From Physcia stellaris (lineage: Eukaryota > Ascomycota > Lecanoromycetes > Caliciales > Physciaceae), in the NCBI GenBank assembly GCA_018902385.1, contig JABSSW010000001.1, forward strand, positions 310,001 to 374,000: DNA of 64,000 nt. The letters are read 5' to 3'. Positions 5,732-62,207 of this stretch are shown one piece after another. The notes beneath the pieces were generated by a model. It searched no databases. It saw nothing but the letters and a program-made list of their open reading frames with translations, and was not told the origin of the DNA. Position numbers and translations under genes: made by a program. How positions within the stretch are numbered: position 1 is the first letter of the stretch; every line of letters begins with the position of its first letter.

Positions 5732-7920
5732 TTATATCGCAAACGCCGCTGGTTCGACTCTACCGTTGATACCATCCATTCTACTGAGCTCCAACTCTTC
5801 CAGTAGTTCTGGGACTAAGCCGACCACTTTGTCTTCTGGGACCTCTATGATCGTGGCAATCAACGTCCTCAATCGTTCACCTTTCTCAGACATCCCTGCC
5901 GTGGCCTGCGCCTGGACGACGGTCCTTACCAGCTGCTGGCGCTTCTCTTGTTCGGCCGCAAGATCCCATGCCAATTGCAGCCTCTCTTGCAGTGCTGCCT
6001 CCCCAAGTGTAGCGCCATTCGTTTGAGCGTGATGTGCCGAGGGAGGCAACAGGGAATCTTCTTCTCTCACTGCCGCATGTAGCTCTCTGTGCTGCTGCTG
6101 CTCGAGGTAGCTCTCCGAGGTAGCCTTCAAAGTATCATATTCACACTGCAGCTCCTCAAGCTCTGCATCGTCGCTTCCATCAATGAGCTCTCCGCTGCTT
6201 AGTAACGCAAACGTCTTTGCACGAGCGAGAGACCTTTCGTGCTCGACATTCGCCAGCAGACGGTGGGCCTCCTCAAGATCAGTCTCTTTGTCTTTCATCT
6301 CAGCGTCCATTGCAATAGCAACTTGTAAACTTTTAGCGGATGAGACGTGCTCAAACGATTCCCTGAATGAACGAGCAGCTTCCGTTCCGAAGTGTGGAAG
6401 AGGGCCTATTGCTGCTACTCCGTTCGGGACATGTCCATTTGCTAGAGTCATTCCTGACTGTACTGGGGAGGACGATGCTAGAGCATATTCCTCTTGACGC
6501 TGGCTGGCGAATCGCTGAATATACTGGTCAGCTGTTTCGCCGCTATTATTTGGTATATCGGTTTGTGCGCCACGACCTAGCAAAGTGCGAATACATTTCT
6601 TGGCCGAGTTGCGAGATACTATGTGTAATGCCGTATCCCCTTGATGATCACGTGCGTTCAAGAAGTCCACAAACTGCTGAGCCGGAAGAATTTGACTTAA
6701 TTTGTGGAGAAGGACTTCCAGATAGTTACGAGCTGGCCTATTCCTGCGCAGAATGCTTGTAGTTGCCGCGACGTGATGGAGAACAGTGCCTCCATAGTTA
6801 TCATGAATACAGAGAGTTTCCTTCAAGAGGTCGACGAGCTGGCCCGTCGTACCCTTGTCATGGTTGTTGATAAACATTACACCGCGAATGAGTGGCGTCT
6901 CGCCTCGTACATTTCGTGCCCCAGGATCAGCATTGAGGTCCAGAAAAGCTTTCACAACGGGGATATCACCCATAGCTGTTGCCCAATGAAGAACGGTGTG
7001 TTCGAGGTCATCGATAGCCCTGTCCATTTCATAATCAGGCGGTGGCATCGGCGGCTCAAGACCAAAAGGTGGTGAGTTTGAGCCTGAAATCATGAAGTAA
7101 TCGAGAAGAGCGTCGGCATAGAGTATTTGATGTTGATCCGCGGCTTCAGCCTCTGCTGCACGCTTGCGTTTTCGTCCGGATATTTGATTGGTATAATAGG
7201 GTGTATCGTGATCTTGTATGAAGGATGCAGAATAGGGGGAGGAGCTTGCCACTGACTCGTCGTCATTGAGCTGAGCGCTGACATTCTCAAAATCTTCGCT
7301 GAATTGGCTAGCTGCGGGCCTGGCCTTCGGTTCTATAATGACGTTAGTCATGTTCAGGAGAGGACTGGTGAGGTGCACTTTGTTTCTTGATGAGCTGAGC
7401 AGGTTTCGGCAGCTTGGGTTTGTTGGTAGCATGCTTAGGCGCTTGCGGTGGACTTATGTCGCCAGGAACATAGTCGAACAGCGGTCTTAACTTTTGAAGC
7501 ACATGATTGCGCTCTGCGAGAATCCGACCTTCGTGCAAAGGAACCCAGGTTCCTGGTATCTAGCGTCAGCGGACGATTGCCAGACGAACAGTCCTTCAAG
7601 AAGTCTCTAACCTTGATACTTTCCATAACCGCCCTGGACCTTCTCATGTACACCTTTCTGGACTTCCCGCTCCAGAATCCTCGTGCGTTGCGGCTTATCA
7701 TAGTCCGCTACCTTGAGGATGTGCGTGGCATTGATCCAATTATCGTGACGACGGCGCATGACATGATTCCCTTCCACGTTGAATTCGAAGACGGGAACCT
7801 GCAAGAGTTTTGGTGAGTGAATCTCGTTTCTCAAATAGGGAGCAGAGAGACAAAGAGGTGACTTACATTACTGTAGGTTGCGGAGTAGATTCCGTCGTTT
7901 GAAATCATGCTGGGAGCCAT
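5732..7920 (-). CDS. mbp1: APSES cell-cycle transcription factor, Mbp1 type
   Basis: This is the DNA-binding subunit of the MBF complex, which drives G1/S genes through MCB elements (ACGCGT) in the nucleus. Four exons (7920-7867, 7798-7612, 7552-7379, 7332-5732) give 671 residues. Introns are 7799-7866, 7553-7611 and 7333-7378; the last is only 46 bp with a weak GTGCAC donor but a good TGACTAAC branch point. The APSES/KilA-N domain covers about residues 8-110 ([24 protein letters not shown], then [16 protein letters not shown]). A basic, NLS-like GRKRKR lies near residue 190. Ankyrin repeats start near 255 ([20 protein letters not shown]) and include [12 protein letters not shown] long coiled-coil part follows and ends in [16 protein letters not shown]. 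Ankyrin repeats and length fit Mbp1/Res rather than the StuA-type APSES factors. The gene shares its upstream region with NDUFB7. Confidence 0.93.
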
Positions 7921-22508: not shown

Positions 22509-25500
22509 ATGGCCGACCCACTCTCTGTTTCGGCCAGTCTCATGAGCCTAATCACGTTTGCTGAAATTATTTTTCGACGGACGTTCAAATATGCAAAAGC
22601 TGTGCGCAATGCGCCAGAGGAAATCAGAAAATTGTCGGACGAGATAAGCGTTCTGCATGGACTGCTTCATCGCGTCCAGCTATTGGCTAGCGAGTTGGAA
22701 GGTCATCCTTCGCAGACATCCATACAGAACTACGGATTGAGTCCATGTCTGGAAACTTTGGAGGAAATCAAGTCAATTTTGGACAAGTTTGAAGCACCCA
22801 CAACAGCCAATCGGACTTTGAGTACAGTCAAAAGGAGATTGGGATGGCCGTTCTCGACATCTGAGGCGAATAGCCTCATAGATGAGATTGGTAGACACAA
22901 AGCAACATTAGGCCTGGCATTGAAAGCGGATGAAATATCTGGTCTAGTCAACGTTCTTGCTAAACAGGCCGGCTTGAGCGATCAACTTCAGGAAATCAAA
23001 AATGAACTCGTACAGAGACGCGAGGTTGAGACGCGCATCCAGCTGGACGAAGAGCGTCGAAAGATTTTGCTCTCATTGGGAGCCACCACCCCAGAACGGA
23101 ATCATGATATGAGCTTGCAACTACGACAACCCAATACCGGCTTGTGGCTAACAGAAGGTGACGAATTCCAAGACTGGCTAATCACGCCTGGTACGGGCCT
23201 ATGGCTTTATGGGATACCAGGCGCTGGCAAGACCGTGCTGGCATCTTCGATAATTGAGAAAGCACTCCAGCGAAGCAGTGATAGTATCGCTGTAGCCTTT
23301 TATTACTGCGACTACAAGGACATTGAGACACAATCGCCAAGAAATATCTTAGGCGCACTTGCAAAGCAAATTGCCAGGCAGGACGAGCAGAGCTTCAAGG
23401 TTCTCCGCACATTCTACCAACAACATCACCGAGTTGATAGAGCGCCCATTGAGTACGAGGCATCTGGGCTTTCAGCTTTGATTATAGAAATGGCAGCTTT
23501 CTTTGAGACGACAATGATCATTGTGGACGCGCTAGATGAGTGTGGGAAAGCTACTAGAACAGTGACAAAGCTATTAGCAGCCCTTCGGAGTAGCAGCGAA
23601 GACACTAGCATTAAGACCCTATTCTTGAGCCGGGAAGAAGTTGAAATTAGAGATGTCCTGGGTGACTATCCGCAAGTATCCATTGCGGCTCGAAGTAGCG
23701 ATCTCAAGCTGTACGTTGGGGCCGAAATGGCAAGGAGAATCAGCGAAAAAGAGCTTCGTATTAAGGACCTATCGCTAAAAGAGCACATTATGGAACGCTT
23801 AATCGAAGGCGCCGATGGAATGTAAGTGCAATCTCATGGAACGCTTCACTTCCTCATTATATGTAGCCTCCCGTACTTTCCCAGAAAAATCTAATTACAT
23901 TACCGACTTTATGTTCAGTCACTGATCTCCATCAACTAGGTTCCGATGGGTCGCTTGTCAGATGGATTACCTTTGCGAGCTCCCAAATGACGCCGCCCGT
24001 CGGAGGGCCCTCGGAACGCTTCCCCCACTTTGAACGCAACGTATGAGCGGATTCTCCAGAAGGTCAATGATAGCAGCGTCGATGTTCAAAAGCTGGTCAA
24101 AAGGTCGCTGTACTGGCTAATACACGAGCCTTCTATCAGTGTTTCTGCCCTGTGCGAAGCCGTGTCAATTGAACCGGAACACAAAAGGCTTGATAGAGAA
24201 GCTGTGCCAGAAGAAGAAGATATACTTCGTCACTGCAGTAGCCTTGTACGGAGGTCCGCGTCTGGTCAGAGGTTGGAGCTTGCTCACTTCACTGTCAGAG
24301 AATTTCTAACAAGCGTCGAGACTCGGTCGAACATTAGCTACTGCGCCTACTCTGTCGTGCCCGACGAAGACAGCTTAGGAGCAGCGGGTGTCGCCAAGAT
24401 CTATCTTAGGTATTTGCTTTTTGAAGATTTCAGTAGTTTTGACAAGCCAGAAAGTTGTCGGACGGAGCCAAACAAAAACGAGTACGCCTTATGGTCACTC
24501 AGCGCTGACAATTGGCTAGCGAACGCTCGTAGCCACATGGACAATTCGGAACTCTTCGATCTAGTTCAACGACTTTTCCATCCCTCAAAGTCAAATAACT
24601 TCTTGAAGTGGGCTCATTACTATGCCGGACATGACGATTATCCAGCAAGTGGTAGTCCACTGCACTTTGCAGCTTCTTTAGGCCTGGGGAAAGTTTGCAC
24701 TTGGCTCGTCCAGAGCGGCTGTAGGGTGAATCAAAACAGTCTGCTGGGCACCCCATTACATTGCGCCTTCTGGGGCTTCGATTTATTCTATGGGAATTCA
24801 CCACAAAGCTTAGTTGAAGAAGGAAGATCTCCTGAGGAGAATGAATCAACTGCGGCAACTGTTCGTGCTTTGCTTGAAGTCGGTGCAGATCCTTCTTTCC
24901 CCTATGAATCCGAAGGTGACACCTGGACTCCGATCGAACTTGCGTTTCGATACAAGAATGAGGATGCGTGTGTCGACTTACTTAGGCGGGGCGCTACAGT
25001 GAGCGACAAGTTATACAGCGATCTTCCCAAATTAGTTATGGGATACAGTTCATTCTGCAAGCAAGTTATAGATCGTGTCGGATTGGAGCACCTCCAGAAA
25101 AGGGGGCACGCACGATTGTTAAGGTTCGCTGCGGACCCAGAATCACTTGAGAGGCCTAAACTGCAAGATATCAATGGCCACTCTACAGAACGGATCCTGA
25201 TCACGAACGAGGATTCGTCTCTAGCTCTTCGAGTCGCAGCATACTTTGGCCAGCTGAGGATGGTTCAGGATCTAGTGCAAGACTTGACGATTGACATTAA
25301 CCAGACAGACAATGATAGTGGTTCAACGGCTCTCATTGAGTCTTGTAAGATGAACCACGTTGATGTACTGAAATTTTTACTTAACCAAGGAGCGGATCCC
25401 AATGTTATGGACTTTCAAGGGAGATTAGCACTTCACTACGCTGTGCAGGCACCTGGATGCCAATGTTTGCCGGTCTTGCTTAAACAAACGGCCGATATTG

Positions 25501-28500
25501 ATGCCTGCGAACGTGATGGCAACAACGTCTGGCATCTCACTGCAGAAAAACCGAATATCGAAGCTTTGCGGATTCTCAAGGACCATACAAAGTGTCCACG
25601 AGGGCCCCTCCAGGCTGTGAAGCATGGATGCGCGGCTCCTGTCTCCCTTACGGAACAGAAAGATGATAAATCTCTCCAAGACAGCCGCGATGAGAATGGC
25701 CCTCGGAAGGTGAATTTTGATGGAGAAACCCCATTGCACTTTGCAATATACGAAGGATCGGCGGAAGCAGCGAAACTTTTGGTTGCTGCAGGGGCAGACC
25801 CACTCATAAAATCAGAAGAAGATTCAACCCTGCTCCACTATGCAGTCACTAAACATGGAAGTAACAGACCCGTAATTGTTGACATGCTCATTGAGATGGG
25901 TGTTGACCCTTGCGGAAGCGGCAAGAGTGGTTCGACTCCACTTCATACACTGATGACTATGTATGTTTACGACGAATGCGATATCGAAGGTAACAAGTTG
26001 ATATTCCAGACGTTAGCAAAGCGGGGAGCGAACGTTAACCAACCCGATGCGGAGGGTCGGACTCCTCTCCATCATCTTTGCGGTGCAAACAGATGCCCAG
26101 TGCGCGAGGGCGCATCTTGGCACGAAGTTGCACTAGACTTGTTGCTGGATCTTTCGGCAGATCTGTTTAGCCGGGACCAGGATGATCAGACGCCAATCAA
26201 TATCCTGATTCGATCTTGGGAACAAGAGTACGTTCCAGACGTCCACTCCAAGCGGGCACCGGTAACTAAAACATCTCGTGTTTGCGCCATACTGCTGAGT
26301 AAGATCGTCGGTCACTGTTCCTCAAAAGGTCCAAGTGAAATGGGTTCTGTCCCGTGGAGCGCGAAGATGCTTTTTCTGGCTTTGTGGCTAAAGGAGGAGG
26401 CGCTGGCGCGCTCAATACTCGATCACAAACCAGACGTAGATGTAAGTACTAGTCCCGGGAAGCTTTCTCCAGTCCAGGGCGCCTGCCTTTATGGGTGCAG
26501 CCGCTCCCTTTTGAAGCGACTACTAGAAGCGTCAAGCTTTCACTCCAACCCGTCTGCCATGGGAATTGGATTGATAGACTTGCTTTGTAGAGATACCGAC
26601 GAAATGAATGACGGCAATCTACTCGAGCTTTTCTGCAATGGATACGATCCAAACAGGCAAATGTCCAACGGTACAACTGCACTTATGATCGCTGCAAGAG
26701 CTGGAAAATTATCATACGTAGAGACCTTAATTCGTCACGGTGTCGATGTATGCGCCCAAGACAATGACGACTGGAATGCAGCACATCACGCATGTTACAG
26801 TGGTCAACTTAATGTCCTGTATGCTCTGCAAAAAGCGAACATCGATTGGAATAGCACAGTGTCCATGCTTCATCTTGCATCCTCCCGAAGCGACAGTAAG
26901 GTAGTTGAATTCCTTCTTACTCAACACCTTGTAGAAGACATCAATGGCCTTACAGACGGTAATGTAACGGCATTACACATCGCCTCGTACTGTGGAATGG
27001 ACATCAATGTTAAGCTCTTGCTTGAGGCTAATGCTGATGATACAATTCTTTCCGATGAGGATGAATCACCCCTTCACGCTGCCGTCAGAGAGGGTCATTT
27101 ACATGTGGTTCGGATTTTCTTATCTAAAAATTGTCAAACACGAATGCCGAATGTGGCTGGGTTAACTCCAGAGCTCTATGCTCGGAAATATTGTCGTCAA
27201 CAAATTTTAGATGTTCTGAAGGAATCTCGAGTCAAAGAAGGTACGTAGCGTCCAAGCAACTCCTAGAGTGGGACAACTCATGGGGATTCAAGTGTAACAT
27301 GATGGGCAGAAGCGTGCGAAACAGTCACAACAGTGTCACATGTCGACTCGAGACGAAGTCCGCTGAAGGCATCAGAGCCGCTAAAACTGGCAATCACTAT
27401 CGGAGACTACGAGCTATGCCGACAACTCATCGAGGAGAAAGAGAACATACATGCCAGCTTGTTTGGTTGTTCAGGCTGTACGCCCTTGCTCTATGCTCTG
27501 CACCTGGGTCGTAGCGATATTGCAAAGTACCTTTTATCTCAAGGCGCCACAACAACCGGGAAGATATGCCAGGGGTATGAAACTTGTGGTTACACGGCCT
27601 TTCATTATGCTGCAGTGCGCGGTGATGTGGGATTTATGAGGGACTTGCTTGACAGTAAACAAGATGATATCTCACAGCATTGTCGCCCTGTACACCCATT
27701 ACACCTGGCAGTCTTGAACAACAATATCGGCTGTGTGAAGCTTCTCCTAGGAAATGCGTCAGGTAAGGTGTTACTTTTCTATTTGTGTGAAGATTGTGGC
27801 TAATCGTAGACCAGGCCAAAGGAAGCGACCTGTTTTGCATCCATGTGAGGAAACCTACGATTCTTTCCATTTAGCAAATCTGGTCACCCAGCGATTATCA
27901 ACAATGGTGCTATGGCATCTTGACTCAAACACCTGTCTTCCCCCTGAATATGAAAATATGGCACCATTACATCTTGCCGCATTAGAAGGTAATGTACCTA
28001 TTGCAAGAGTCATTCTCACCTACGGGGCTTCGGTGGACTGTACCGATGATGAATATTGTACACCATTGCATGCTGCATGTAGGCGAGGTCGAATCGAGAT
28101 GGTTCGGCTCTTGCTAGCTTGGGGGCCAATCCAAATTCTTTGAACAGCCTGATGGAGAGCCCTAGCATGTTGGCCGCCTACGCTGGTAGTCTCGAATCTT
28201 TGGAAGCTCTTGTGGACGCCGGCGCGGATCTGGGACTACAAGATATTTATGGGTGCACAGCGTTGCATTGTGCAGCAGAATCAGGGGAAATCCATACTTT
28301 GGGCTTTTTTATCAACCATATGATCAAGTACAAGATAGAACCAAAGGCCAATTTAGGTGATTCGGTAATCGGTGAATTGTTCCGCCTTTCGCCGTTACTC
28401 GCATTCAATCTGGTATCAAGTTTCAGCTCCAACCTCGGCGCCTACGAACCTCGAGCGGCTAATATACTATCAGCTGCTGCCTACAATTCCGAAACTTCGA

Positions 28501-28889
28501 TGCTCAAGAAAGTCCTCCGAGTGGTCCCTAGAGAGATGACCCATGGACTTCTGAACCAGAGGCATCGCCGGCTAGGTTCCCCTCTCCACGCCGCAGTCCT
28601 GTACCGTCCAGAAAACATCGACATTCTGCTAGACGCAGGCGCCGACCCCGAACTCGATGGAAGCGAACATGGTACCCCGCTGATGGCGGCCTGCGCAATC
28701 GGCCGTTTGCCTGCCGTCAAGAATCTTGTCGCAAGAGGTGCGAAGACGTCCTACATTCGAGACGGCGAACTCTTTAGCGTTGTGAATTCAGCCATACTCC
28801 ATCCTCCGGTTCTTCGCTGGCTGCTAGTTGGTCGGTTCATGGAAGGACGTAGATTACTTACATGTGCTTCAGATGCCGAAGAGGGCTAG
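22509..28889 (+). CDS. NACHT-ankyrin STAND receptor (fungal NLR-like), with two apparent -1 frameshifts
   Basis: This is a fungal STAND protein, the architecture linked to non-self recognition and regulated cell death. Exons are 22509-23821, 23940-27240, 27334-27762 and 27815-28889. Order: N-terminal STAND domain (Fungal_N, helo-like; MADPLSVSASLMSLITFAE) about 1-150; NACHT ATPase with Walker A GIPGAGKT at 235-242 and Walker B MIIVDALDECG near 336; winged-helix-like part (TLNATYERILQKV, LAHFTVREFL); then about 25 ankyrin repeats from ~675 to the end. Exons sum to 6,118 nt, two short of a multiple of three. One base is missing in a C run at 24022-24026 (between LGTLPP and TLNATYE) and one in a G run at 28121-28125 (LLLAWG/ANPNSLN). 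With both restored the product is 2,039 residues. Elsewhere no in-frame stop occurs over 6 kb, which argues against old decay. It may be an assembly error or a recent pseudogene. Intron 3 (27763-27814) uses the second of two nearby acceptors. Confidence 0.8.
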
Positions 28890-42295: not shown

Positions 42296-45200
42296 CTAGT
42301 CGCTGTTCGTGGATGACTTCGGATCCGGTCGGTTTCTGAATGGTGTTGCACCTCCGCTCTTCTGGGCAGGAGGCGTCCCATTCGCGCTGTTCTTCCTTTC
42401 AACTCCGTTCGAACTCTTGCTCTCGAAGATCCTTGAGCTCTTCCTCTCGACTCGACCGCCGTTCTTCTTCTTGTCCACTGACGTGGTGCGCTTGAGTACG
42501 GCCTGACTGAATGACCTAAAGCGACCAGTCTTCTCTGCGGCGGGTTCTTCACCTTGAATAGTGACAGGCTCCTCCTTCTTGATCTTGCAAAACAAGGTTG
42601 AGAACAAAAACTGATCACCATTATGATCAAAGAGAGGGAGATGGCGGTAGCCTTCTTGTAGGGTGCTCAGTTTTGCAGTGAAAGTAGCCAAGGGGTCTTG
42701 GCTGGGATTGTTGTTGTAGCCATTGCCGTCCAAGGAGTTCCATACAGTCCAACGAACAAAGACAAGCTCGGGATACTTGGTATCTAGAGACAACTTGAAA
42801 TCCTCGTCGAAAACCGGATTGAAGCCATTCGCCTGGACGACACGAGTTCGCCTCCGGTGCGGAGCACCTATGCCTGACATGCCGTTGCGGGGAGAGGCAT
42901 CTTGGCCGCCTTCGCCGGCAGCAAGGCTCTTGCCCTTGTCCTCGGCACTGAACATCTCGATCTCAATGTACGGATCAAGAATCTCTTCTGCGCCCATTCT
43001 TGAGGGTCTCGGAAGTTGTTGGGCTGATATGACTTTGACCGAGAACTTGATAAATTTTCGCTGAGGCTTACTGATCCCGGGCATTATGGGCTCGAGATCG
43101 GATTCCTCCAACGAGGCTGATTGTCGGAGTTCCGCGGCTTAAGGACGTAGCCGTACTGGTCCTGCCCGCTGGCGAACATTGCATCATTCATCTGCATAGG
43201 GAGGTCGTAGGTCTGCCAGTTGAGTGCCACCATCTGCACGCCACGTCTCCAGAACTTCAGCGGGTCTGGGTTGCCGGATGACCACCTATACGCAGCCGGG
43301 TAGACACGCATGAGGTAGCGCATGTTGTGTTTTTCGAGTTGCTCTTTGCCGTCCGGTTGTTCGCATATTTTGTTGAAATTATTTTCGGCGAGAGAAAATA
43401 CATGATTGGGTGTCTGACTCTCCAGTGAGGTGAACGAAGCATTGAACTTATAGCCCTGTGTGTAGACTCCGAGCTCTCCAAGCGACGAAATGATTTTTGT
43501 CTTTGGTTTAGATGGTGCTCGTTTCGGACGTGGTTTACTACTATGTGCCGTATCGCTATCATCAGCGCTACTCATGCTGGTGGTGGTCATGGAACCTCGA
43601 CTAGCAAGCCAAGGGGTTCCATATTCTGACGGACTTGTCGAAGGAGGGCTTGACAAAGGTACTCCACTCGGTATGGCGGAGTTGTCCAGAGCCATAGGTC
43701 GAGAATAAGGCGAGCTAAGACTACGTTCACGGGTCTTAGAAGGGGTGTCTGGGGGTGGGTTCGGCTTCGCTCCAGCCTTGACTTTGACCAAGATTTTGTG
43801 TTTAAGATCATCGGGGAAGGCAGATTGAGTGAATTCGTCATAAGTGGTTCTCGTATAAGCCAAGGCGAGAGTTTCTCAAGCATGATGTCCACCATTATCT
43901 GTTGCTGCTCCGGACAACAGTGAACTTCGAGTGATAAGATTAGAGGATATGGAGAGGAACCAAATGAGTATTCCGATTTTCCGATGATCGAGATGACGTC
44001 TGCGAATGAGATAGCGCCAGTGAAGCTGTGTCCATGCTTGACGATAGGACGACCGTATTCTCCATCCCAACAATCTATCTCGACACAGCGGCAGCCCTTT
44101 TGCAGCGCCCTAATGTAAGGTTCAACACTGGATGCATCACCAAACTGGCGGCCGACAAGGTAAGTGTTATGAGAACTGGAGATGAAATATTCGTTCAATG
44201 GTCGCTCCAATCTGACAGAGGATGGCTTGATTGCCAAGACATAATTGTACTTAGAAGACACGAAGTTGGAAAAGCCGGTAAGATTCATTCGTGATATTGA
44301 TAGATCAGGCACATCTGGTAGAATTGGGTTTTGAGGATCCGGTTTGGGCACGAACTTGGTAAACACTTTGACCCAGTGCGGCCGGTTACTTGCAACATCG
44401 ATGCGTTGGGTGTCCTTCAGGAAGTCAAGGAATTCGTCAAGATCGAGGCCTTCAGGGTCTTTCAGATCAAAGGTTTTGAAGATGTCTCTCACGTCATTGC
44501 GCTGCTTTAGGCGACGGACAAAGTCCTTGAACTGCAGAAAGCTCAGAGTGCCAAGAGAATGAGTGTCTGCCTTCTGGAATTGTGCCTTTAAGACATTCTT
44601 GGAGCACCAGAGATGTAGACTTCGACAGAGGTTTTCCACCCCGTCTAGGTCAAGGAACTCGTCATCCTCTGAACGAGGCAGATCGCTAAAGTTTTTAGTC
44701 ATCGCTTGTTTCCAATGGCTTCTCAGGCTTTTCTCATCTTGACCGACGAGACCGGCCATCAGTTCATGACGGGACTTTGACAAATTGCCAAGAGTAGTTG
44801 TCCACAACTCAAACACTTGCTGGTTTGGTGCGATGAGATGCATAGCCTTGAGCGGCCTTCCTTTGGCTCGATCATGATCTGCGTAGATGATGGTAAAAAA
44901 TCGCGCCTCGAAACTGTCCTGAACATTGAATCCTTCACGGTAGTTCCGTGCATCCTTCCCTAATCGGATCTCCTGGATGTCATCGACATAGAATCTCTTG
45001 GAAATGTTGTTCGGGTTCCAGTACACCTTACCGGAGTTGGAATCCAGTTGGAATTTGAGGGTTTTGCGCTTCTTCTTGGTCACTTTCGTGAGCATTGTCC
45101 CTCTCCCAAGCAAGTGTAGACCCCAAGAGGCGGATGTTCCATCATAAGGGGTGATGTTAGGTGTACCTACTCGACTATCAAGGCTGAATCCGTCGCCAGA

Positions 45201-45761
45201 GAGGCCAAGGCCTTGTAGAGGCAAAGGACTAGAGATGATGTCCTCACTTCCTAGTTCGGATTCGGATTCCATCAAGCCATCCGTGCCCGCTTCGCTTTTG
45301 CTGCCACTCCGACGTCGCATCATTACAGGTCCGGAACTTCTTTCACGGCTAGCAACATGGTTGGATGATTGTCTCCGGCGTAACTTGTTGGCAGCGCCTT
45401 GGGATATTCGTCGGATCAAGCCCGGCCCCTTGCTAATCGCCACCGCCTCACTCATAGCATTCTGCCTTGGGGACATGGGTATACTGGCGATGGGTTCGGG
45501 GAGCTGTAAAGGTGTAGGAGGATCCGACCATGGAGGGAAGCGACCCCGAGGTCCTTCTGGTGAAGACTGAATGGAATTGTTTGCGGGAGTAGTGGATGAC
45601 GAGATGGCTGAAGATGTAACGGCTGACGCAGGCGTCAGCGTCACTGGGATTGCTGTCACAATCTGTTGAAGGGAAGTAGAGTGGGCAGAGGAAGGCTGTG
45701 GCCTATCTTTCTTGACCGTACCATTGGCCAATCCCGGCGAGGGAATAGCTGAGGGAGCCAT
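42296..45761 (-). CDS. plc1: Phosphoinositide-specific phospholipase C, with two apparent -1 frameshifts
   Basis: This enzyme cleaves PIP2 to IP3 and diacylglycerol at the plasma membrane. One uninterrupted exon is proposed, 3,466 nt. This is two short of a multiple of three; restoring one base at each of two sites gives 1,155 residues. Order: disordered region 1-210; PH domain ~212-335 (YWNPNNISKRFYVDDIQEIR); EF-hand-like 360-470; catalytic X domain ~525-665 with SSHNTYLVG, VEIDCWDG and KHGHSFTG; Y domain ~758-875 (LGVYTQGYKF, RYLMRVYPAAYRWSSGNPDP); C2 domain ~900-1040 (FSVKVISAQQLPRPS). Break 1 is a C4 run on the coding strand (plus 43813-43816): LNLPSP must continue with DDLKHKILVKVKAG. 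Break 2 is a GG (plus 43132-43133): VLKPR must continue with ELRQSASLEESD. No intron fits at either site. Assembly error is more likely than loss, since all motifs are intact. Confidence 0.88.
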
Positions 45762-48700
45762 GGTATCTGGAAGCGGGTCGCTGAGCGCAGTGCTAGCGAG
45801 CTTATTTGTGGTATACTTTGGGTCGCTTTGAAAGCCGCAAAAGGGCCATAACGTGATCTGTCTGGCCTAGAGGGGACGACGAGTATGTGCTGCGGTGTGC
45901 ATCTCGCCTTCCAGAGGACGAAAGTTGAGCGGCAAGAATGAGCGAATACGTGGGGTACAGGAGAGGCAGGGTGGGCCAGGGAGCAGATTGTCGATGACCG
46001 ATTGATTGTTTGGTTTCACGAGTGTTTGCTCCACGAATGTTTGAGTACGAGTGGACGAATTGGGCGACAGGGCGACAAGCGCAGGGAATTGATGAGTTCG
46101 ATGACTGAGACTCTGCAGGGAGTATTGGAATCGTGTCAAACGACGGCAAACGCAAGCATGACCTGAAAGGAACGGATAGGATCTGTAAGTAAGATTGGGA
46201 ATATGATTATGAAGTTGCATCAAAAAGGAGTGGGATGCGGATGGTGATTGAAAAAGTTTCGACTCGGTGAATCAGAATGTAAAGTGACGGTGACAAGGAT
46301 GGCCAGATTTGGGATAGCCAGGAACACGCGGCTGACTCGGAGCTTGCTGTGCAGTATTATGCACTGCAAACAGGATTTTTGATTAAGTCGAGTTTAGTTA
46401 CTCCAGGTATGATATCGACCGTCTTCACACACTCTCCGTGCGACGGCCAAGCCATAAGCCTCGAGTTGCAGCATCTAGCCCTACGACTACGTATGTGTCT
46501 ATGTATACTCACATGCATTTGCATTCTTCCCTCTGCAGAACTTGGCCGCCAATGCCCGCCAGTGGTAATTGTACGCGAATGGCATCATCTCCCTTCATCG
46601 CATGCATCCCGTCCTGCCTGCGTAACCTGGAATGAGTGCTGATGGACGTTAGGCGCATGATCTGGTGTTGCCCTCACGCTTTCTTCTGTGGCCCCTGATT
46701 TGCAAGTTGCAACTGTCAACCTCGTGCACATCCGCAGTGTGCCGCCAATCAGAAGTTTCTTTGGAAATATCTTCGTCCATCCGAGCAGAGCCGTCACTGC
46801 GGTGGTCAATCTTTGCTCGCTTCCAGTCTAGTCTCGCTGTCGCTGGTTGGGATTTTCCTCGTGCTGAGGGTGACTTCATACTTTTAGCGTGGGTTAGGGG
46901 CAACTTAAATCTTACTCGTCCACCCACTATCTCTTCTAGCATCAGGTACATACCTACAGGTACAGCCTCGTGCTCGGGGGACGTACATGCATATTTCTAG
47001 TTTGTGATTTATGGATATAGTATTAAGCAGCGAGCTGAGCAGGATACGAAGACAGTTACGTGTTGCGCAGTCCGAGCGTCAAGACATTGCTGCCTCCCCA
47101 TATCAAATTCACCTTACCCCTCAACGTGTCCAAGAGCCCTACGGAGCTACCGAAATCCCTCTATTTTATGCATGCCATCCGTACATGATCATCGATAAGG
47201 GGAGCCACGTTTCCAGCAGTTTGGTAGCTAGCCCGCCCTGACCAAAGCACCCCATAATTCGCAATTCCTCGACTGAGCGGCCCCCCTGTTTAATGTTTTA
47301 CATACGTTCGTCTAGTCCATCTTGGTGCAAGTGTTATCCTTAGTGACGGTTTGAGTCTTATCGGTGCCGATTGCTTTTTCTGAGAAGCTTTCACATCCAG
47401 ATTTGCGATGTCGGAGGATGAACAAGTCGTAATAGCTACCAGGCTGCGGTGGGCCGTAATGGGCTGACGTCTGTCGCGCTCGGAGGATATTTCGCCGTTG
47501 CACGTCGTACAACCATGCAAGTCATGAGGGCGCCGGGCGGTGTCCAGCAAATTATCTTTTATTTGCTCTTCTTGGCGCTACCCCGTGCGCTCTGTCGCTT
47601 AATATTGCCCACCAATGCGCTGTGCGGACAGTGCGATTCGACCAAGACAAGTTGGCCCATCGGAGATAGCTCTGCTTTCGTAAGCATGCTTTCGTATCCT
47701 GCAATATAGGTGTTGGCATGATCACAAGATCGCTGTATTATTCCCTGCCCGGGCAAGCGGTAGCGTACGGAGGTCCAAAAACCGAAATATGCGCAACGCC
47801 CAGCCATGGGGGATAGCAGAATCCCACCCACCTATGTACAAAGATCAACGCTCCGTCACCCCTGAATGCCTTGTGCCCTCATGCCTTTCCGCCTCACTGT
47901 AAGGCCTTTGCAGCGAGTCTGGCGCGGGTGCTGTCACACAACCTCAAGGTATACTACGGTCTGGAACATGCTTTTGGTCTCCGAAGCGCCCTGGAAGTCA
48001 ATCCGTAGACGGGATGTTGCTGTTCAGCTTCACAAAAAAGCAGACCGAGCATCCAATGGCCTATGATCACGCGTTCTTCTCTTCAACGATTGCCTGCGTC
48101 TCGGCCACCCTCTTCGCGTGTTGATCTAGAGATAATATATTGCCTGTGCCGCTAGCAATAGAACTCGCTTAATAAGGTGATGGGCCTGGAATTGGAAGCG
48201 TTGTCATCCAAAGCATATGGAGCTCAGCTGTCTGCTGTACTGTGGGGGCGTCTTTGTTGGGCGCAAGATTCAAACAGGAAAAGAGGATAGATGTTTCGGT
48301 GTAGCATCGTCGAGTCCCAGCAGCAGAAACCCCCACGACACACTGACAGTGCGAAAAAGCGTATTGTGCCTGGAATCGTTCATCTAAGGCACGGTACGTG
48401 CGCACCTCGATTTGCTAAGACATAGCTGGCACGCTCAATGCAGACATGTCTCTAATTCATCTCTGGAGCACAGGAACTACAGGGACCGTAGCCATCGTAT
48501 TTTATGAGACAAATCGACGTTGCAAACAGCAGAGATGAGTGAGCCCACAACAACCCACCCACAACCGCAGTTGCAAATATCACCACGAAGATCACTTAGG
48601 GACGGATCTTCAATCTCCGGCAGCTCATCTAGGATTTTGTAAAGTCTGAGAAGTTCATGATTGTTTAAACCCAATGACTCGGTTGTTGCTGTGCAGGTCT

Positions 48701-50353: not shown

Positions 50354-53300
50354 ATGGAGGGGGCTTTCACGCATCTTGGCAATCATCTGATATCTGATTC
50401 AGCTCCTACTATTAATGCTGGCGATGACCTGTCCACTATCGATGCAGATGAGAGTATTTTGGACCGAGAATATGGGAGGGGGAACTTGTCTGGAGGCCCA
50501 AGGAGACGTCAACATGACGACGAGGATGATGGAAATGAAGCTTTTGAAGACGATGACACGGAAAGCATGGCGAGTATGGCGGTAGACGGTGCCAACGGCA
50601 AACAGGCAGTGAGGAATGAAGAGGAGAAAGAGCTGCCACCGCACGCTTGCGCGTGAGTGTTGGGTCATTCGAAGTATGGTTCATATGCTAATTTCTCTTG
50701 ACCTTAAGATATTGCGGTATACACAATCCAAGCTCTGTAGTAAGGTGTCTCGCCTGCAGCAAGTGGTTCTGTAGCGCTCGTGGCAATACTTCCTCATCGC
50801 ACATCATCAACCATCTGGTACGCGCCCGGCACAAAGAGGTTCAGCTACATCCCAGCTCATCGCTGGGAGACACCGTATTGGAATGCTACAACTGTGGCAC
50901 AAAGAATGTTTTCTTGCTAGGATTTATACCAGCCAAATCAGATACGGTAGTCGTCCTTCTTTGTCGTCAGCCTTGCGCTTCGATGCCTTCTTCTAAAGAT
51001 ATGAATTGGGACGTGTCTCGATGGCAACCCTTGATCGAAGATCGCTCATTTCTAAGTTGGCTGGTGTCTTCGCCATCAGATCAAGAGCAGCTACGAGCAC
51101 GCCATCTCAGTCCTCAACTTATCGCGAAACTGGAGGAAATGTGGAAGGAGAACGTTGACGCGACAATCAAAGATCTGGAGAAGGGAGCCGGGATCGATGA
51201 TGAGCCAGCGCCCGTTCTGCTTCATTATGATGATGCTTATCAATATCAAAATGTCTTTGGTCCTCTCGTCAAGATTGAAGCAGACTATGACCGGAAACTA
51301 AAGGAGTCGCAGTCTCAAGACGGGCTCATCGTCCGTTGGGATTTTGGACTTAACAACAAGCACCTTGCCAGCTTTGTCCTCCCGAAGCTTGAACTTGGAG
51401 ACGTCAAGCTCGCAGTTGGTGACGAGATGCGCATCAAATATACGGGAGAGCTTCGTCCAGTATGGGAAGGTGTCGGCTATGTTATCAAGATACCCAACAA
51501 CCAGTCCGACGAAGTTACTATTGAGCTTCGTGCCAAAGGAGATCATAAATCTGTGCCTACTGAATGCACGCATAACTTCAGTGCTGATTACGTTTGGAAG
51601 GCTACTTCCTTCGATCGGATGCAGCTTGCTATGAAGACTTTTGCAGTGGACGAAATGAGCGTCTCAGGCTACATCTTCCACCGACTGCTAGGTCACGAGG
51701 TTGCTGCAGCACCAATGAAGACTAATATGCCGAAGAAATACAGTGTTCCTGGCTTGCCTGAACTCAATGGCAGCCAAATCAACGCTGTGAAGAGCGTCCT
51801 CCAAAAACCCCTAAGCTTGATCCAGGGACCACCCGGGACAGGTAAAACTGTCACATCAGCTACAATTATCTATCATCTTGCGAAAATCAACGATGGGCAG
51901 GTCCTCGTTTGCGCTCCGTCCAACGTGGCCGTGGATCAGCTGTGCGAGCGTATCCATAAAACAGGCCTTAAAACGGTCCGTGTCACTGCAAAGTCTAGAG
52001 AGGACGTTGAGTCTCCAGTCGGATTTCTTTCTTTGCATGAACAAGTCCGGATGAACGATAGTAATATCGAGCTAGTGAAGTTGAATCAGCTCAAGAGTGA
52101 ACTTGGCGAACTATCTCAGCAAGACGAAAAGAAATACAAAACGCTCACTCGCAACGCTGAACGCGAGATACTCACCAACGCAGACGTAATATGCTGTACC
52201 TGCGTCGGAGCAGGTGATCCACGTCTTGCACGATTCAAATTCCGCACAGTCCTAATTGATGAATCGACTCAATCCGCCGAACCCGAGTGCATGATCCCCT
52301 TGGTGCTTGGCTGTAAGCAAGTTGTCCTCGTCGGAGACCATCAGCAGCTTGGCCCAGTCATCATGAACAAGAAAGCCGCCAAAGCAGGTCTTAATCAGTC
52401 TTTGTTTGAACGCTTGGTCATCCTTGGCTGTGCACCAATCCGACTGAACGTGCAATACCGCATGCACCCCTGTCTATCGGAATTCCCATCCAACATGTTC
52501 TACGAAGGGTCGCTTCAAAATGGGGTCACCATGCAACAACGCCTTAGACGCGACGTTGATTTCCCATGGCCGGTCAACGATTCGCCAATGATGTTCTGGT
52601 CGAATCTAGGGAACGAGGAAATCTCAGCTTCAGGCACATCCTACCTAAACCGCACGGAAGCTTCGAACGTTGAGAAGATCATCACTCGTTTCTTTAAAGC
52701 CGGTGTCCAACCGAGCGATATTGGTATCATTACTCCGTACGAAGGCCAGAGAAGCTACGTGGTGAGCTCAATGCAGAGTACTGGTAGCTTCAAGAAGGAG
52801 AATTACAAAGAGATCGAGGTCGCGTCTGTCGATGCATTCCAAGGACGAGAGAAGGACTTCATTGTGCTGTCTTGCGTCCGCTCCAACGACCACCAAGGTA
52901 TCGGGTTCTTGAGCGATCCCCGCCGTCTTAACGTCGCTCTCACTCGGGCGAAGTACGGTCTTGTAATCCTCGGCAATCCGAAGGTACTGTCGAAACACCC
53001 ACTTTGGCATTTCCTGCTTCAACATTTCAAGGAGCGCAATTGCCTAGTAGAGGGTCCACTGTCGAATCTCCAGATGTCACTCTTGCAATTCAGCCGGCCA
53101 AAGCAATCTTACCGCGGGCCCCAGCGCTACCAGATGTCCTACCAACGTGCTTCGGACATGGCTCACGGTATGCAAAACGGCCGCAATGGCCAGCGCCAAG
53201 AATACAATGACGCTGGTTCGATTGCAGGCTACATCCCAGATGATGTCTCCTCCGTCCATTCTTCTGCAATCGGTGGAGTCGGCGTGCCCTCCGCATATCC

Positions 53301-53694
53301 CCCAATGTTCTCAGGCTTTCAGGATACATGGCCTAGCTTGAACGGAGGTCGCCGACCCAACGGAACCAAAAGCAGAACCGGTACAGAAAGCGTTGCTGGT
53401 GAGTCTGTTGCTGCTACCGAGTCAGATATCAACGGCGCAAGTATTGCTGGTGGTGGGAAAGGAGGAGTCAGTCTTGCTGGGCTCAGTATCAACGATGCTA
53501 AACAGACGAGCCTTAGCCAATCTGACCGCCTCAAGCGGTATGTTGAATCTGGTGGTCGTCCGGGCGAGTCTGGTAGCATTCTCAGCGGAGCCTCTACCAA
53601 CAGCCGGGTCGCTCGGGGACCTAACGACGACGAAGATGCGCGGAGTGTTTCGACCGCATTCGCAAGCCAAGTCGGCTTAGGCAGCTATGATTGA
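50354..53694 (+). CDS. upf1: Upf1/Nam7 RNA helicase of nonsense-mediated decay
   Basis: This superfamily-1 ATP-dependent 5'-3' RNA helicase recognises premature stops with Upf2 and Upf3 and triggers mRNA decay in the cytoplasm. Exons 50354-50652 and 50709-53694 give 1,094 residues; the 56-bp intron lies inside the first zinc motif (HACA|YCGIHNP). The Cys/His-rich domain is about 96-190 ([24 protein letters not shown]). A 1B-type beta-barrel precedes the helicase core. Motifs are GPPGTGKT near 472 (Walker A), [10 protein letters not shown] (Ia), [11 protein letters not shown] (II), [10 protein letters not shown] (III), NVQYRMHP (IV), [20 protein letters not shown] (V) and [11 protein letters not shown] (VI). 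The C-terminal ~200 residues are Ser/Gly/Gln-rich, consistent with a regulatory tail. Confidence 0.97.
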
Positions 53695-59251: not shown

Positions 59252-62207
59252 TTAGGCCATCACGGCGGTGGGTCTCAGTGCTCCTCGGGGGTTGTTGCGG
59301 CGCTGGGATTGGGACTGGGATTGGGATTGTGATTTGGAGGAGGGGCGGGCGAGGGTGTATCTAAGTTAGGAAAGGGTGTTAGCTACAGTCTCGTACGACC
59401 TTTTTGGACCGAGGACGATTACTCCTCTCTCCCAGACCATCGTCATCGAGGCACGGGCAGACATAAACTGCGTGCTGGAAACCAAGATGATGACGGGTGA
59501 AGATAAAAGGATAGGATGAAAAAGGGGAGGAAGAGAGGGGGATACATACTTCGCAAACGCCCTGCCAAGTGCTTTCCTGCAGGAGACCTTCTGTGCGCCG
59601 ACGAAGGAGTCGACCGTCACGGCAATGGCGCGATCCACGTCCTGCGAGGTGCAGTACTCGCTCAGACGCATCTTGCAGAACGCCTCTGCTATTCGGATGA
59701 TGGCTTCGAGATGGCGGACCTGTGTTTCCAGCATCAGCAAAGCCCCTAACAACCCAATCTCTCCCCATTTCTCCCAAACCAGACGCCAAAAAACAGGAGG
59801 TAAAGACACATACGGTAATCGGATACGCCCCCGTAGCCAACGACTCCCGCCTCATATCCGCAAACAATCTCGCGACCTTATCCTGATCGATCTGGTACAG
59901 TTTCGGCCGACACCTCTCGCGAGCGTAGAGGATATACTTCCTCAGCAGCTCCTGGTCGATCTCGCCCTCCTGCTTCGGTTCCCCGCCGTTGATGCCCTGC
60001 TGGCGCACCTCATCTTCATGCTCCGTCTCCATCCTCTCTTGGTTCTCTTCGACGGCATTGGAAGCAGGGTGCGCTCTCCCGTGCGATCCGACCACGAAGC
60101 GAGCGAGTCGCTCGTCTTGCTCTGGGTCTACGGTGTCACGGACGACGCACATGATGTCGAAACGACTGAGGATGGGCTCCGTGAGCTCGACGTTCTGTGC
60201 GAGGGGCACGGTGCTGTTGTACCGGCCTCCGATGGGGTTAGCGGCAGCGACGATGGCGCAGCGCGCTTGGAGCGTGGTGACGATGCCGGCTTTGGAGATG
60301 GAGATGGTTTGCTGCTCCATGGCCTCGTGGATGGAGGTGCGGTCTGCGTCGTTCATCTTGTCGAACTCGTCGATCAGACAGGTCCCTCTGTCTGCGAGTA
60401 CCAGAGCGCCGCCTTCGAGCGTCCATTCTGCCGTCAGCGGGTCTTTGCGCACTGAGGCTGTGAGACCGACTGCGGAAGCGCCCTGGCCAGTAGCGAAAAC
60501 GGCACGGTGAGCGGTCTTTTCGATGTATTTCAGGACTTGCGATTTGGCGGTCCCGGGGTCGCCGAGGAGGAGGATGTTAATGTCGCCTCTGATGTTGAGC
60601 TTGCCTTGAGCTACTTTGCTCACGCCGCCGAAGAGAGAGAGCGCGACGGCGGTTTTGATGTCGGTGTGGCCGTAAATGGAGGGCGCGATAGAGGCGATGA
60701 TTTTATCCACGATTCGAGGATCGCGGGAGAGGAGACGAATGCGGCGCTCGTCGTCTTCTGTGAGGCGGAAGCCGGCAAGGGCGTCGTGCGACTTGATAAC
60801 ATGATTTGCTTCGAGGATGGTGGCGAAGACGGGAAAGCCGTTGCGGTTGTTGAGTTGCGCGCTGTAGCTGTTTCGGTAGATGCCGGTGATCTCGATCTCT
60901 TCACCTGGCTTTGCACTGTCGATCAGGTCCCAAAGGAGGATGACTTCACGGTGACGAGGTAATCGGCCAGCGGGAACGGTGCCAGGGGATTCTTGCAGAG
61001 TGAGTCTTTGGTAGTTGCGGTAAATGGTCTGTTGGCTGTTGAGGGTGAAGGGGCCGCGAGATTGGCAGTTTTGGCAGTAGCTGATCTTGACTTCGGCGTT
61101 GGATTCTTGCTGAAAGGGACCAAGTGTGATTCCGCATTTAGTGCAATCAAAACGGACATACTTGAGCTGAGGAAAAACTCCACTTCGACGAGTGACGACG
61201 CCTGTCACTCGGACTAAGCAGTTGAGATGTGTTTGGCGAAGTTGGCGGAGAGTGTAATGTACGGGAAGATCTGATATCCGAACGTGGATCTCTGAGTGAA
61301 TTCGCTCATAGTCGGGATAGTGAAGAAGGGTCACGTCCATGGCGACTTGATCGAAGATAGCGAGGACTTCTGTGGGGGCGTTTGCAAGGAAGTAGGCCAA
61401 TATTGCCTTTGAGGATGAGAGGTGGTCGTAGGATACTTCGAGCGATTCCGCATTCACTTCTCCCAACGTACGAACGCGCGTACCATACACTGAGACGCCT
61501 TTCTCATCAGTGTATTCAGTCAGGAACGACTTGAACTCGCGGAAGATGGTACGGTGGACGGAAGGTAGGGCAACCCAGTCAGTCAAACTGGAGGCTTTGA
61601 CATCCTGTAGAGTCTCGAGGGATAGCTCTTCTTCCATGATGTCGTCTGCCATATCTTCATCGTCTTGGTCTTCATCGTAATGATGTCTTCGGCGTCTCGG
61701 CTGGCGGGTGAGGTCCATCTCCATGTCTTCGTCCTCATCCTGAAGGAAAGCAGCGGGCATACGGCGTCTTCTGGCTAGTTCACGATCACGCTTGTTCAGC
61801 CTTGCTTCAAGTTGTCGTCGAGTAGCTGCGTCAAGTTCTTCGTAATCTCCTTCGTCGTCAATGTCTGCACCGGCATAGGCATCGTTTTCTCTCTCTTTGT
61901 AATCGCGCTCAAAATTGTCCGCGAATAAGTCAATACCGTCCTCGTCTTCTGCCATCTCGTCTGCATCGTCAATATCACCGATGAGATCATTGTCAGGGTC
62001 GATTCCTTCGTCGTCATCGTCGTCCATAGGCAGTACTGGTGGTGACGATGGGGGTGCTAATAGACATCAGCCATGTCCGTCGTACTTACTTTGACTCTAC
62101 TCACGGCTTGAAGGAGGTACTGCGGAGGAAGATAGCAGCTCATCGTCAGGCTCTCTCGAGCGTTTGCGCCCATTGCGAGCACTTGGGCCACGATTCGCGG
62201 CAGACAT
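59252..62207 (-). CDS. mcm2: DNA replication licensing helicase subunit Mcm2
   Basis: Mcm2 is one of six subunits of the MCM2-7 replicative helicase loaded at origins in G1. Exons 62207-62105, 62056-59814, 59719-59550 and 59360-59252 give 874 residues; introns are 48, 94 and 189 bp. The first exon encodes MSAANRGPSARNGRKRSREP and the last encodes the Ser/Gln tail ending PTAVMA. The N-terminus is acidic (DDDDDEG, DLIGDIDDADE), as expected for histone binding. The zinc finger is CTKC...CQNC. The AAA core has GDPGTAKSQ (Walker A), LIDEFDKMND (Walker B), the arginine finger SRFD and AAANPIGGRYN. The C-terminal winged-helix part is VRHLEAIIRIAEAFCKMRL. Upstream lies a promoter with MCB and SCB sites, as expected for a G1/S gene. 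Confidence 0.96.

What the first reader, a model, noticed from the sequence alone, without database searches (positions are those of the whole stretch)
22509..28889. Giant NACHT-ankyrin receptor whose frame is broken only by two missing bases
The four-exon model is 6,118 nt, two short of a multiple of three. Each break maps to a C or G homopolymer (24022-24026 and 28121-28125) where one more base restores family sequence (LGTLPP/TLNATYE and LLLAWG/ANPNSLN). About 25 ankyrin repeats follow the NACHT core, an unusually long sensor. Everything else is open over 6 kb. So the gene is either intact and mis-assembled, or was disabled very recently, as happens in polymorphic fungal incompatibility genes.
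Basis: partly seen in the sequence, partly recalled or inferred. Interest (0 to 1): 0.75.

Follow-up and report, generated by a model that had tools for sequence, protein, structure and literature searches.

The report
Ordinary fungal immune receptor, assembly errors
This is an ordinary fungal NACHT-ankyrin immune-receptor gene whose two reading-frame breaks are most likely sequence-assembly errors, because genes the fungus cannot live without, such as the one for RNA polymerase II, show the same kind of break in this assembly.

Summary
A four-exon NLR gene (HeLo-like/PigL_N domain, NACHT/NPHP3_N, about 25-33 ankyrin repeats by eye) lies at 22509-28889. Its frame breaks twice, each time as if one base were missing, at a C5 and a G5 run. 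Introns explain the breaks only by deleting coding sequence.

The same one-base-short break occurs in genes that should be indispensable: RPB2 (RNA polymerase II) and RPN5 (proteasome), each found once in the genome. It also occurs in two HSP70-type chaperone genes and twice in a phospholipase C gene of this window. All eight homology-supported breaks are one base short modulo three. In four housekeeping families, 3 of 28 frame-changing junctions have an excess of 20 nt or less, too little for an intron; the other 25 have 47 nt or more.

Best reading: an intact, mis-assembled NLR rather than a recently disabled one. The repeats are diverged (mean identity 31% over 13 scored repeats) and not tandem at DNA level, so it lacks the hallmark of hypervariable incompatibility NLRs.

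Two breaks in one gene is more than a uniform error rate predicts (P 0.008-0.09), so errors probably cluster locally. Real loss is not excluded without reads.

The parts
22509..23821 (+). exon 1: HeLo-like/PigL_N N-terminal domain plus NPHP3_N/NACHT core (P-loop GIPGAGKT)
   Evidence: Pfam PF24883 132.5 bits, PF17111 30.7 bits (cut-off 27.2), PF05729 26.7 bits (cut-off 26.7)
23822..23939 (+). intron 1, GTAAGT...CTAG, 118 nt; acceptor at the same position relative to FRWV as in paralogue L002
   Evidence: splice sites; paralogue
23940..27240 (+). exon 2: region after the NACHT core and the first ankyrin repeats; frame break inside it
24022..24026 (+). frame break 1 (C5 run); downstream frame is one base short
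27241..27309 (+). intron 2, GTACGT...GCAG, 69 nt (acceptor uncertain, 27309 or 27375)
27310..27762 (+). exon 3: ankyrin repeats
27763..27814 (+). intron 3, GTAAGG...CCAG, 52 nt with CTAAT branch site (112-nt version ending 27874 is also in phase)
27815..28889 (+). exon 4: ankyrin repeats to the stop codon; frame break inside it
28121..28125 (+). frame break 2 (G5 run); downstream frame is one base short
42296..45866 (-). control in the same window: phospholipase C gene split over three frames (breaks near 43820-43808 and 43140-43125)

Best explanation
An ordinary, probably intact fungal NLR (STAND) gene of about 2,045 codons: a HeLo-like N-terminal domain, a NACHT nucleotide-binding core and a long ankyrin array. 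The two frame breaks are most likely single-base losses in the assembly consensus, here in C5 and G5 runs, not mutations in the organism. By family knowledge (inferred, not shown here), the ankyrin array senses a ligand, the NACHT core oligomerises on nucleotide exchange, and the HeLo-like N-terminus carries out or relays a membrane-damaging cell-death signal. Shown: domains, exon pieces, the break sites, and the same break type in housekeeping genes of this assembly. Inferred: that the NACHT breaks themselves are errors, and the function.
For: (1) RPB2 on C12: profile positions 9-115 and 121-373 lie in different frames 17 nt apart, excess 2 nt. A search of the genome with its upstream piece found that place and one other, on C15, which matches RNA polymerase I RPA2/RPA135. 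(2) RPN5 in L028, one of 20 regularly spaced sample loci: the pieces on both sides match RPN5/PSMD12 structures, the frame changes between them, no GT lies in the interval, and the one in-phase intron found (83 nt, donor GTACTT) would delete coding. The upstream piece has one match in the genome, itself. (3) Two HSP70-type genes (C8, C39) change frame with excess -1 and 20 nt. (4) The phospholipase C gene of this window has two such breaks; all three pieces match phospholipase C structures. (5) All eight homology-supported breaks are one base short modulo three. (6) In four housekeeping families 25 of 28 frame-changing junctions show an excess of 47 nt or more, as introns should; 3 of 28 do not. 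(7) 0 of 42 matches to the NACHT profile carry an internal stop. (8) Precedent: a deletion in a Podospora NLR allele judged a misassembly in a small homopolymer tract (PMC12222747, passage).
Against: The break rate elsewhere is modest: 3 in 37,491 matched nt of housekeeping families, none of them in Cpn60/TCP1 (13,887 nt) or tRNA-synt_1 (7,317 nt), and 1 homology-confirmed break in 56,384 nt of ab initio coding, where simulated losses were found in 87 of 105 trials. Under a uniform rate, two breaks in one 6.1-kb gene has P of about 0.088 (housekeeping rate) or 0.008 (sample rate), so local clustering of errors must be assumed. With exon 1 as query, 10 of 73 matches in the genome contain a stop; these may be introns, or some NLRs may really decay; not examined. 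Not all the control breaks sit in long runs: the second phospholipase C break and RPN5 do not (by eye). In-phase GT-AG pairs that would delete coding exist over each of the eight breaks, and for C39 (excess 20) an intron is least firmly excluded. Homopolymer slippage is also a real mutational process. No reads or alleles could be examined. There are two further PI-PLC-X genes, so this phospholipase C need not be essential; essentiality of RPB2 and RPN5 is recalled. The polymerase III relative of RPB2 was not found, so these searches can miss genes.
Confidence: 0.85

Rival explanations
1. The gene is a true, very young pseudogene (or a null allele of a polymorphic NLR) with two real one-base losses in homopolymers.
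For: Two breaks in one gene exceed a uniform error rate (P 0.008-0.09). NLR alleles with supported stop codons exist in Podospora (PMC12222747, passage). 10 of 73 exon-1 matches in this genome contain a stop (cause not examined).
Against: The same signature is present in RPB2 and RPN5. Two breaks also sit in the phospholipase C gene about 13 kb away. No nonsense codon interrupts the family frame within the pieces, though that alone is weak evidence.
Confidence: 0.11
2. The breaks are unrecognised introns or alternative splicing.
For: In-phase GT-AG pairs exist over each break (11 for break 1, 16 for break 2), and the permissive ab initio model placed introns there.
Against: They would remove at least 98 nt or 56 nt of coding, and the six shortest printed for each have poor or non-consensus splice signals. 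Paralogues run through break 1 without a gap.
Confidence: 0.02
3. Programmed -1 frameshifting joins the frames during translation.
For: Both sites are homopolymers and both need the same shift.
Against: Neither site fits the usual X_XXY_YYZ heptamer in the zero frame (by eye; the motif rule is recalled). The same breaks appear in unrelated housekeeping genes. Five of five paralogous loci printed carry no break at the site of break 1.
Confidence: 0.02

Closest known systems
Fungal NLRs of HeLo-like / NACHT / ANK architecture (PMC4986451; PMC12258605; passages read)
   Same: PigL_N (PF17111, the accession that PMC9815663 calls Helo_like_N), NPHP3_N/NACHT core and C-terminal ankyrin repeats in that order; T-NACHT/ankyrin is among the commonest associations reported for Sordariales (PMC12258605, passage)
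   Different: the ankyrin array is long (about 25-33 repeats by eye) and diverged; the assembled frame is broken twice
HNWD-type incompatibility NLRs (het-d, het-e) of Podospora
   Same: NACHT core with C-terminal repeats
   Different: those have WD40 repeats with over 80% internal identity (PMC12222747, passage); here ankyrin repeats of 31% mean identity and no tandem DNA array
Long-read consensus indels in fungal assemblies (Drechmeria coniospora, PMC7500977, passages read)
   Same: single-base errors in homopolymers that split conserved genes into adjacent frames
   Different: there over-long homopolymers were commoner after polishing; here the eight breaks are one base short; the sequencing technology of this assembly is unknown

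Membership tests
Fungal NLR (NACHT-ANK STAND protein) | nucleotide-binding NACHT-type core with P-loop | tested here: met
   PF24883 132.5 bits and PF05729 26.7 bits (cut-off 26.7); P-loop GIPGAGKT in the translation
Fungal NLR (NACHT-ANK STAND protein) | N-terminal effector/signalling domain | tested here: met
   PF17111 PigL_N 30.7 bits against cut-off 27.2; SesA 21.3 is below its cut-off of 26.3
Fungal NLR (NACHT-ANK STAND protein) | C-terminal superstructure-forming repeats | tested here: met
   Ank families in four of four downstream pieces
Highly internally conserved (hypervariable) incompatibility NLR | repeats with high mutual identity (over 85% over at least 100 aa in PMC4986451) | tested here: not met
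   13 strict repeat hits, 78 pairs: best 52%, mean 31%; no tandem array over the gene
Heterokaryon incompatibility gene | allelic polymorphism with incompatible cell-death reaction | not testable with these tools
   only one genome is held and it has no relatives here
Pseudogene | inactivating changes present in the organism's own DNA | not testable with these tools
   no reads available; indirect evidence favours assembly error

The most novel reading that the evidence does not exclude
A long HeLo-like-NACHT-ankyrin receptor truly silenced in this isolate by two very recent homopolymer losses, kept as a null allele in a population where others carry a working copy.
Probability: 0.1. Interest if true: 0.35.

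Novelty: new member of a known kind. Interest (0 to 1): 0.12.

Why it matters
The main value is cautionary: this assembly carries one-base-short breaks that split housekeeping genes, so frame breaks in its NLR or other genes should not be read as pseudogenes without read support. The gene itself adds a long NACHT-ankyrin receptor to a known family.

Tried and rejected
Ab initio frame-break detector. With permissive introns it turned breaks into false introns. With a strict setting (-18) it found 38 of 105 simulated losses, with -9 it found 87 of 105. It missed NACHT break 2, placed the phospholipase C breaks imprecisely, and labelled break 1 as an insertion because it chose another intron 1 acceptor (23961); the paralogues support 23939. 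In L009-L028 it gave five events: L028 was confirmed by homology; L013 (labelled an insertion) coincides with a tandem duplication of about 16 nt and was not homology-checked; L015, L017 and L024 were weak or at a gene edge and not followed. In the window it gave five: break 1, two in phospholipase C, one antisense to MCM2 and one of gain 0.3. Of the NACHT loci L001-L008, L004 gave two weak events and L007 one, not followed; L029 and L030, the flanks of the window, gave none.

Housekeeping count: families Cpn60_TCP1, HSP70, tRNA-synt_1 and RNA_pol_Rpb2_6, 61 rows, 31 junctions within 1,500 nt, 28 of them frame-changing. Sugar_tr (only 9 of 210 candidates scored) and PI-PLC-X were left out of the count; their rows show no tight frame change by eye. 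The junctions counted as introns were not read base by base, except those of the Cpn60/TCP1 gene on C36.

In one search the interval typed for the second phospholipase C break lay a few bases downstream of the true place; one search repeats it at the right place and adds RPB2 and the two HSP70 genes. For these three the shortest in-phase GT-AG pairs (41, 44 and 65 nt) have poor splice signals and would delete profile-matched coding.

AlphaFold2 without an alignment gave unusable models (mean pLDDT 43.5 and 41.0), so no fold search was made. The search of solved structures with exon 1 listed only AAA-type ATPases through the P-loop. The strict ankyrin profile found 13 repeats, fewer than Pfam and the eye suggest; its first identity figure used only 4 of them, so all 13 were compared. 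Programmed frameshifting and introns were rejected as above. The organism was not identified.

Full report
Observation. The window lies in a 43.97-Mb genome of 147 contigs, as C1:310001-374000. At 22509-28889 five open pieces follow each other. The first carries PigL_N (PF17111, 30.7 bits) and NPHP3_N/NACHT (132.5 and 26.7 bits); the other four carry ankyrin repeats. Three introns are supported by splice signals: 23822-23939, 27241-27309 and 27763-27814. Intron 3 is better placed with the acceptor at 27814 (52 nt, CTAAT branch) than at 27874, though both are in phase. The remaining two frame changes are at C5 24022-24026 and G5 28121-28125, two of the four C/G runs of 5 or more in the gene. 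In both, the downstream frame is one base short.

Break 1 is real relative to the family. Between the F(R/L)(W/Q) motif and the next conserved motif the window has 29 residues once the frame change is allowed, and five of five paralogous loci printed (L001, L002, L003, L007, L009) have 29 without a break (by eye). Break 2 lies inside an ankyrin repeat, which keeps its 33-residue period only with the frame change (by eye). No GT or AG lies in either interval. In-phase introns over the breaks would delete at least 98 or 56 nt of coding, and the shortest use poor splice signals.

Is it specific to this gene? No. The phospholipase C gene at 42296-45866 (minus strand) in the same window is split over three frames. 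All three pieces match phospholipase C structures in order, and it changes frame near 43820-43808 and 43140-43125, one base short each time. RPN5, the proteasome lid subunit, in L028 (one of 20 regularly spaced 10-kb loci), changes frame between two pieces that both match RPN5/PSMD12; no GT lies in the interval and the one in-phase intron found would delete coding. The piece has a single match in the genome. The RNA polymerase II subunit RPB2 on C12 has its profile matches 9-115 and 121-373 in different frames, 17 nt apart. The upstream piece matches Rpb2 best (E 2.4e-58), and the only other place it finds in the genome is RNA polymerase I RPA2/RPA135; the polymerase III relative was not found, so such searches can miss genes. 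Two HSP70-type genes, on C8 and C39, change frame with an excess of -1 and 20 nt; C39 is the less certain. That makes eight breaks in six genes, counting the two NACHT breaks, all one base short modulo three. They are not all in long runs (by eye).

How common is it? In four housekeeping families (61 matches, 37,491 matched nt) 28 of 31 close junctions change frame. Of these, 25 show an excess of 47 nt or more, as introns do, and 3 do not. That is one break per about 12.5 kb, 95% interval about 4.3 to 61 kb. None was in the Cpn60/TCP1 or tRNA-synt_1 families. The ab initio scan of 200 kb gave one homology-confirmed break in 56.4 kb of predicted coding, with a sensitivity of 87 of 105. For a gene of 6.1 kb the chance of two or more is about 0.09 or 0.008 by these rates. 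The gene was chosen because it is broken, and the phospholipase C gene about 13 kb away also has two, so errors probably cluster here. This is the main weakness of the error reading, and only reads can settle it.

Is it a recently disabled incompatibility gene? Nothing found points there specifically. The ankyrin repeats are diverged (13 scored repeats, 78 pairs: best 52%, mean 31%) and leave no tandem DNA signal. In fungal NLRs a marked class has repeats of high internal conservation; 10% of ankyrin repeats are of that class (PMC4986451, passages read). None of 42 NACHT profile matches in the genome has an internal stop; with exon 1 as query 10 of 73 matches do, which may be introns or decay and was not examined. 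The array is long (Dyrka et al. name 21 as the most highly conserved ankyrin repeats in one protein of their set, same passages), but single open frames of 1,100-1,469 aa occur at other NACHT-like loci here.

Function, by inference from the family: the ankyrin array senses a ligand, the NACHT core oligomerises, and the HeLo-like N-terminus executes or relays cell death. PF17111 is listed as Helo_like_N, and its profile match aligns with the MLKL executioner domain in one cluster (PMC9815663, passages read). No structure model was good enough to test this.

Precedents. A nanopore Drechmeria assembly had many conserved genes split by homopolymer errors before short-read polishing (PMC7500977, passages read). 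In Podospora a deletion in an NLR allele was judged a misassembly in a small homopolymer tract, while another allele had stop codons supported by reads (PMC12222747, passages read). The sequencing technology of the present assembly is not known to me.

Noticed in passing
window 42296-45866 (-): Phospholipase C gene split over three frames by two one-base-short breaks; same signature as the NACHT gene.
   Followed up: yes
L028 3807-4399 (+); L031 (C12:647103-647119, -); L032 (C8:120786-120858, +); L033 (C39:184599-184633, -): One-base-short (modulo three) frame breaks in RPN5, RPB2 and two HSP70-type genes.
   Followed up: yes
L013 about 8270 (-): A tandem duplication of about 16 nt coincides with a frame change in a predicted gene; error or real duplication not decided.
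   Followed up: partly
G000, ten places listed (for example C41:270749-271672): Ten of 73 matches to exon 1 contain a stop codon; introns or decayed NLR genes, not examined.
   Followed up: no
window 5732-7453 (-): A second ankyrin-repeat protein (573 aa) with a short ankyrin array; resembles Swi6/MBF-type regulators (recalled, not tested).
   Followed up: no
window 50692-53694 (+) and 59379-62066 (-): UPF1 and MCM2 genes have their conserved domains in single open frames, so errors in the window are patchy.
   Followed up: partly
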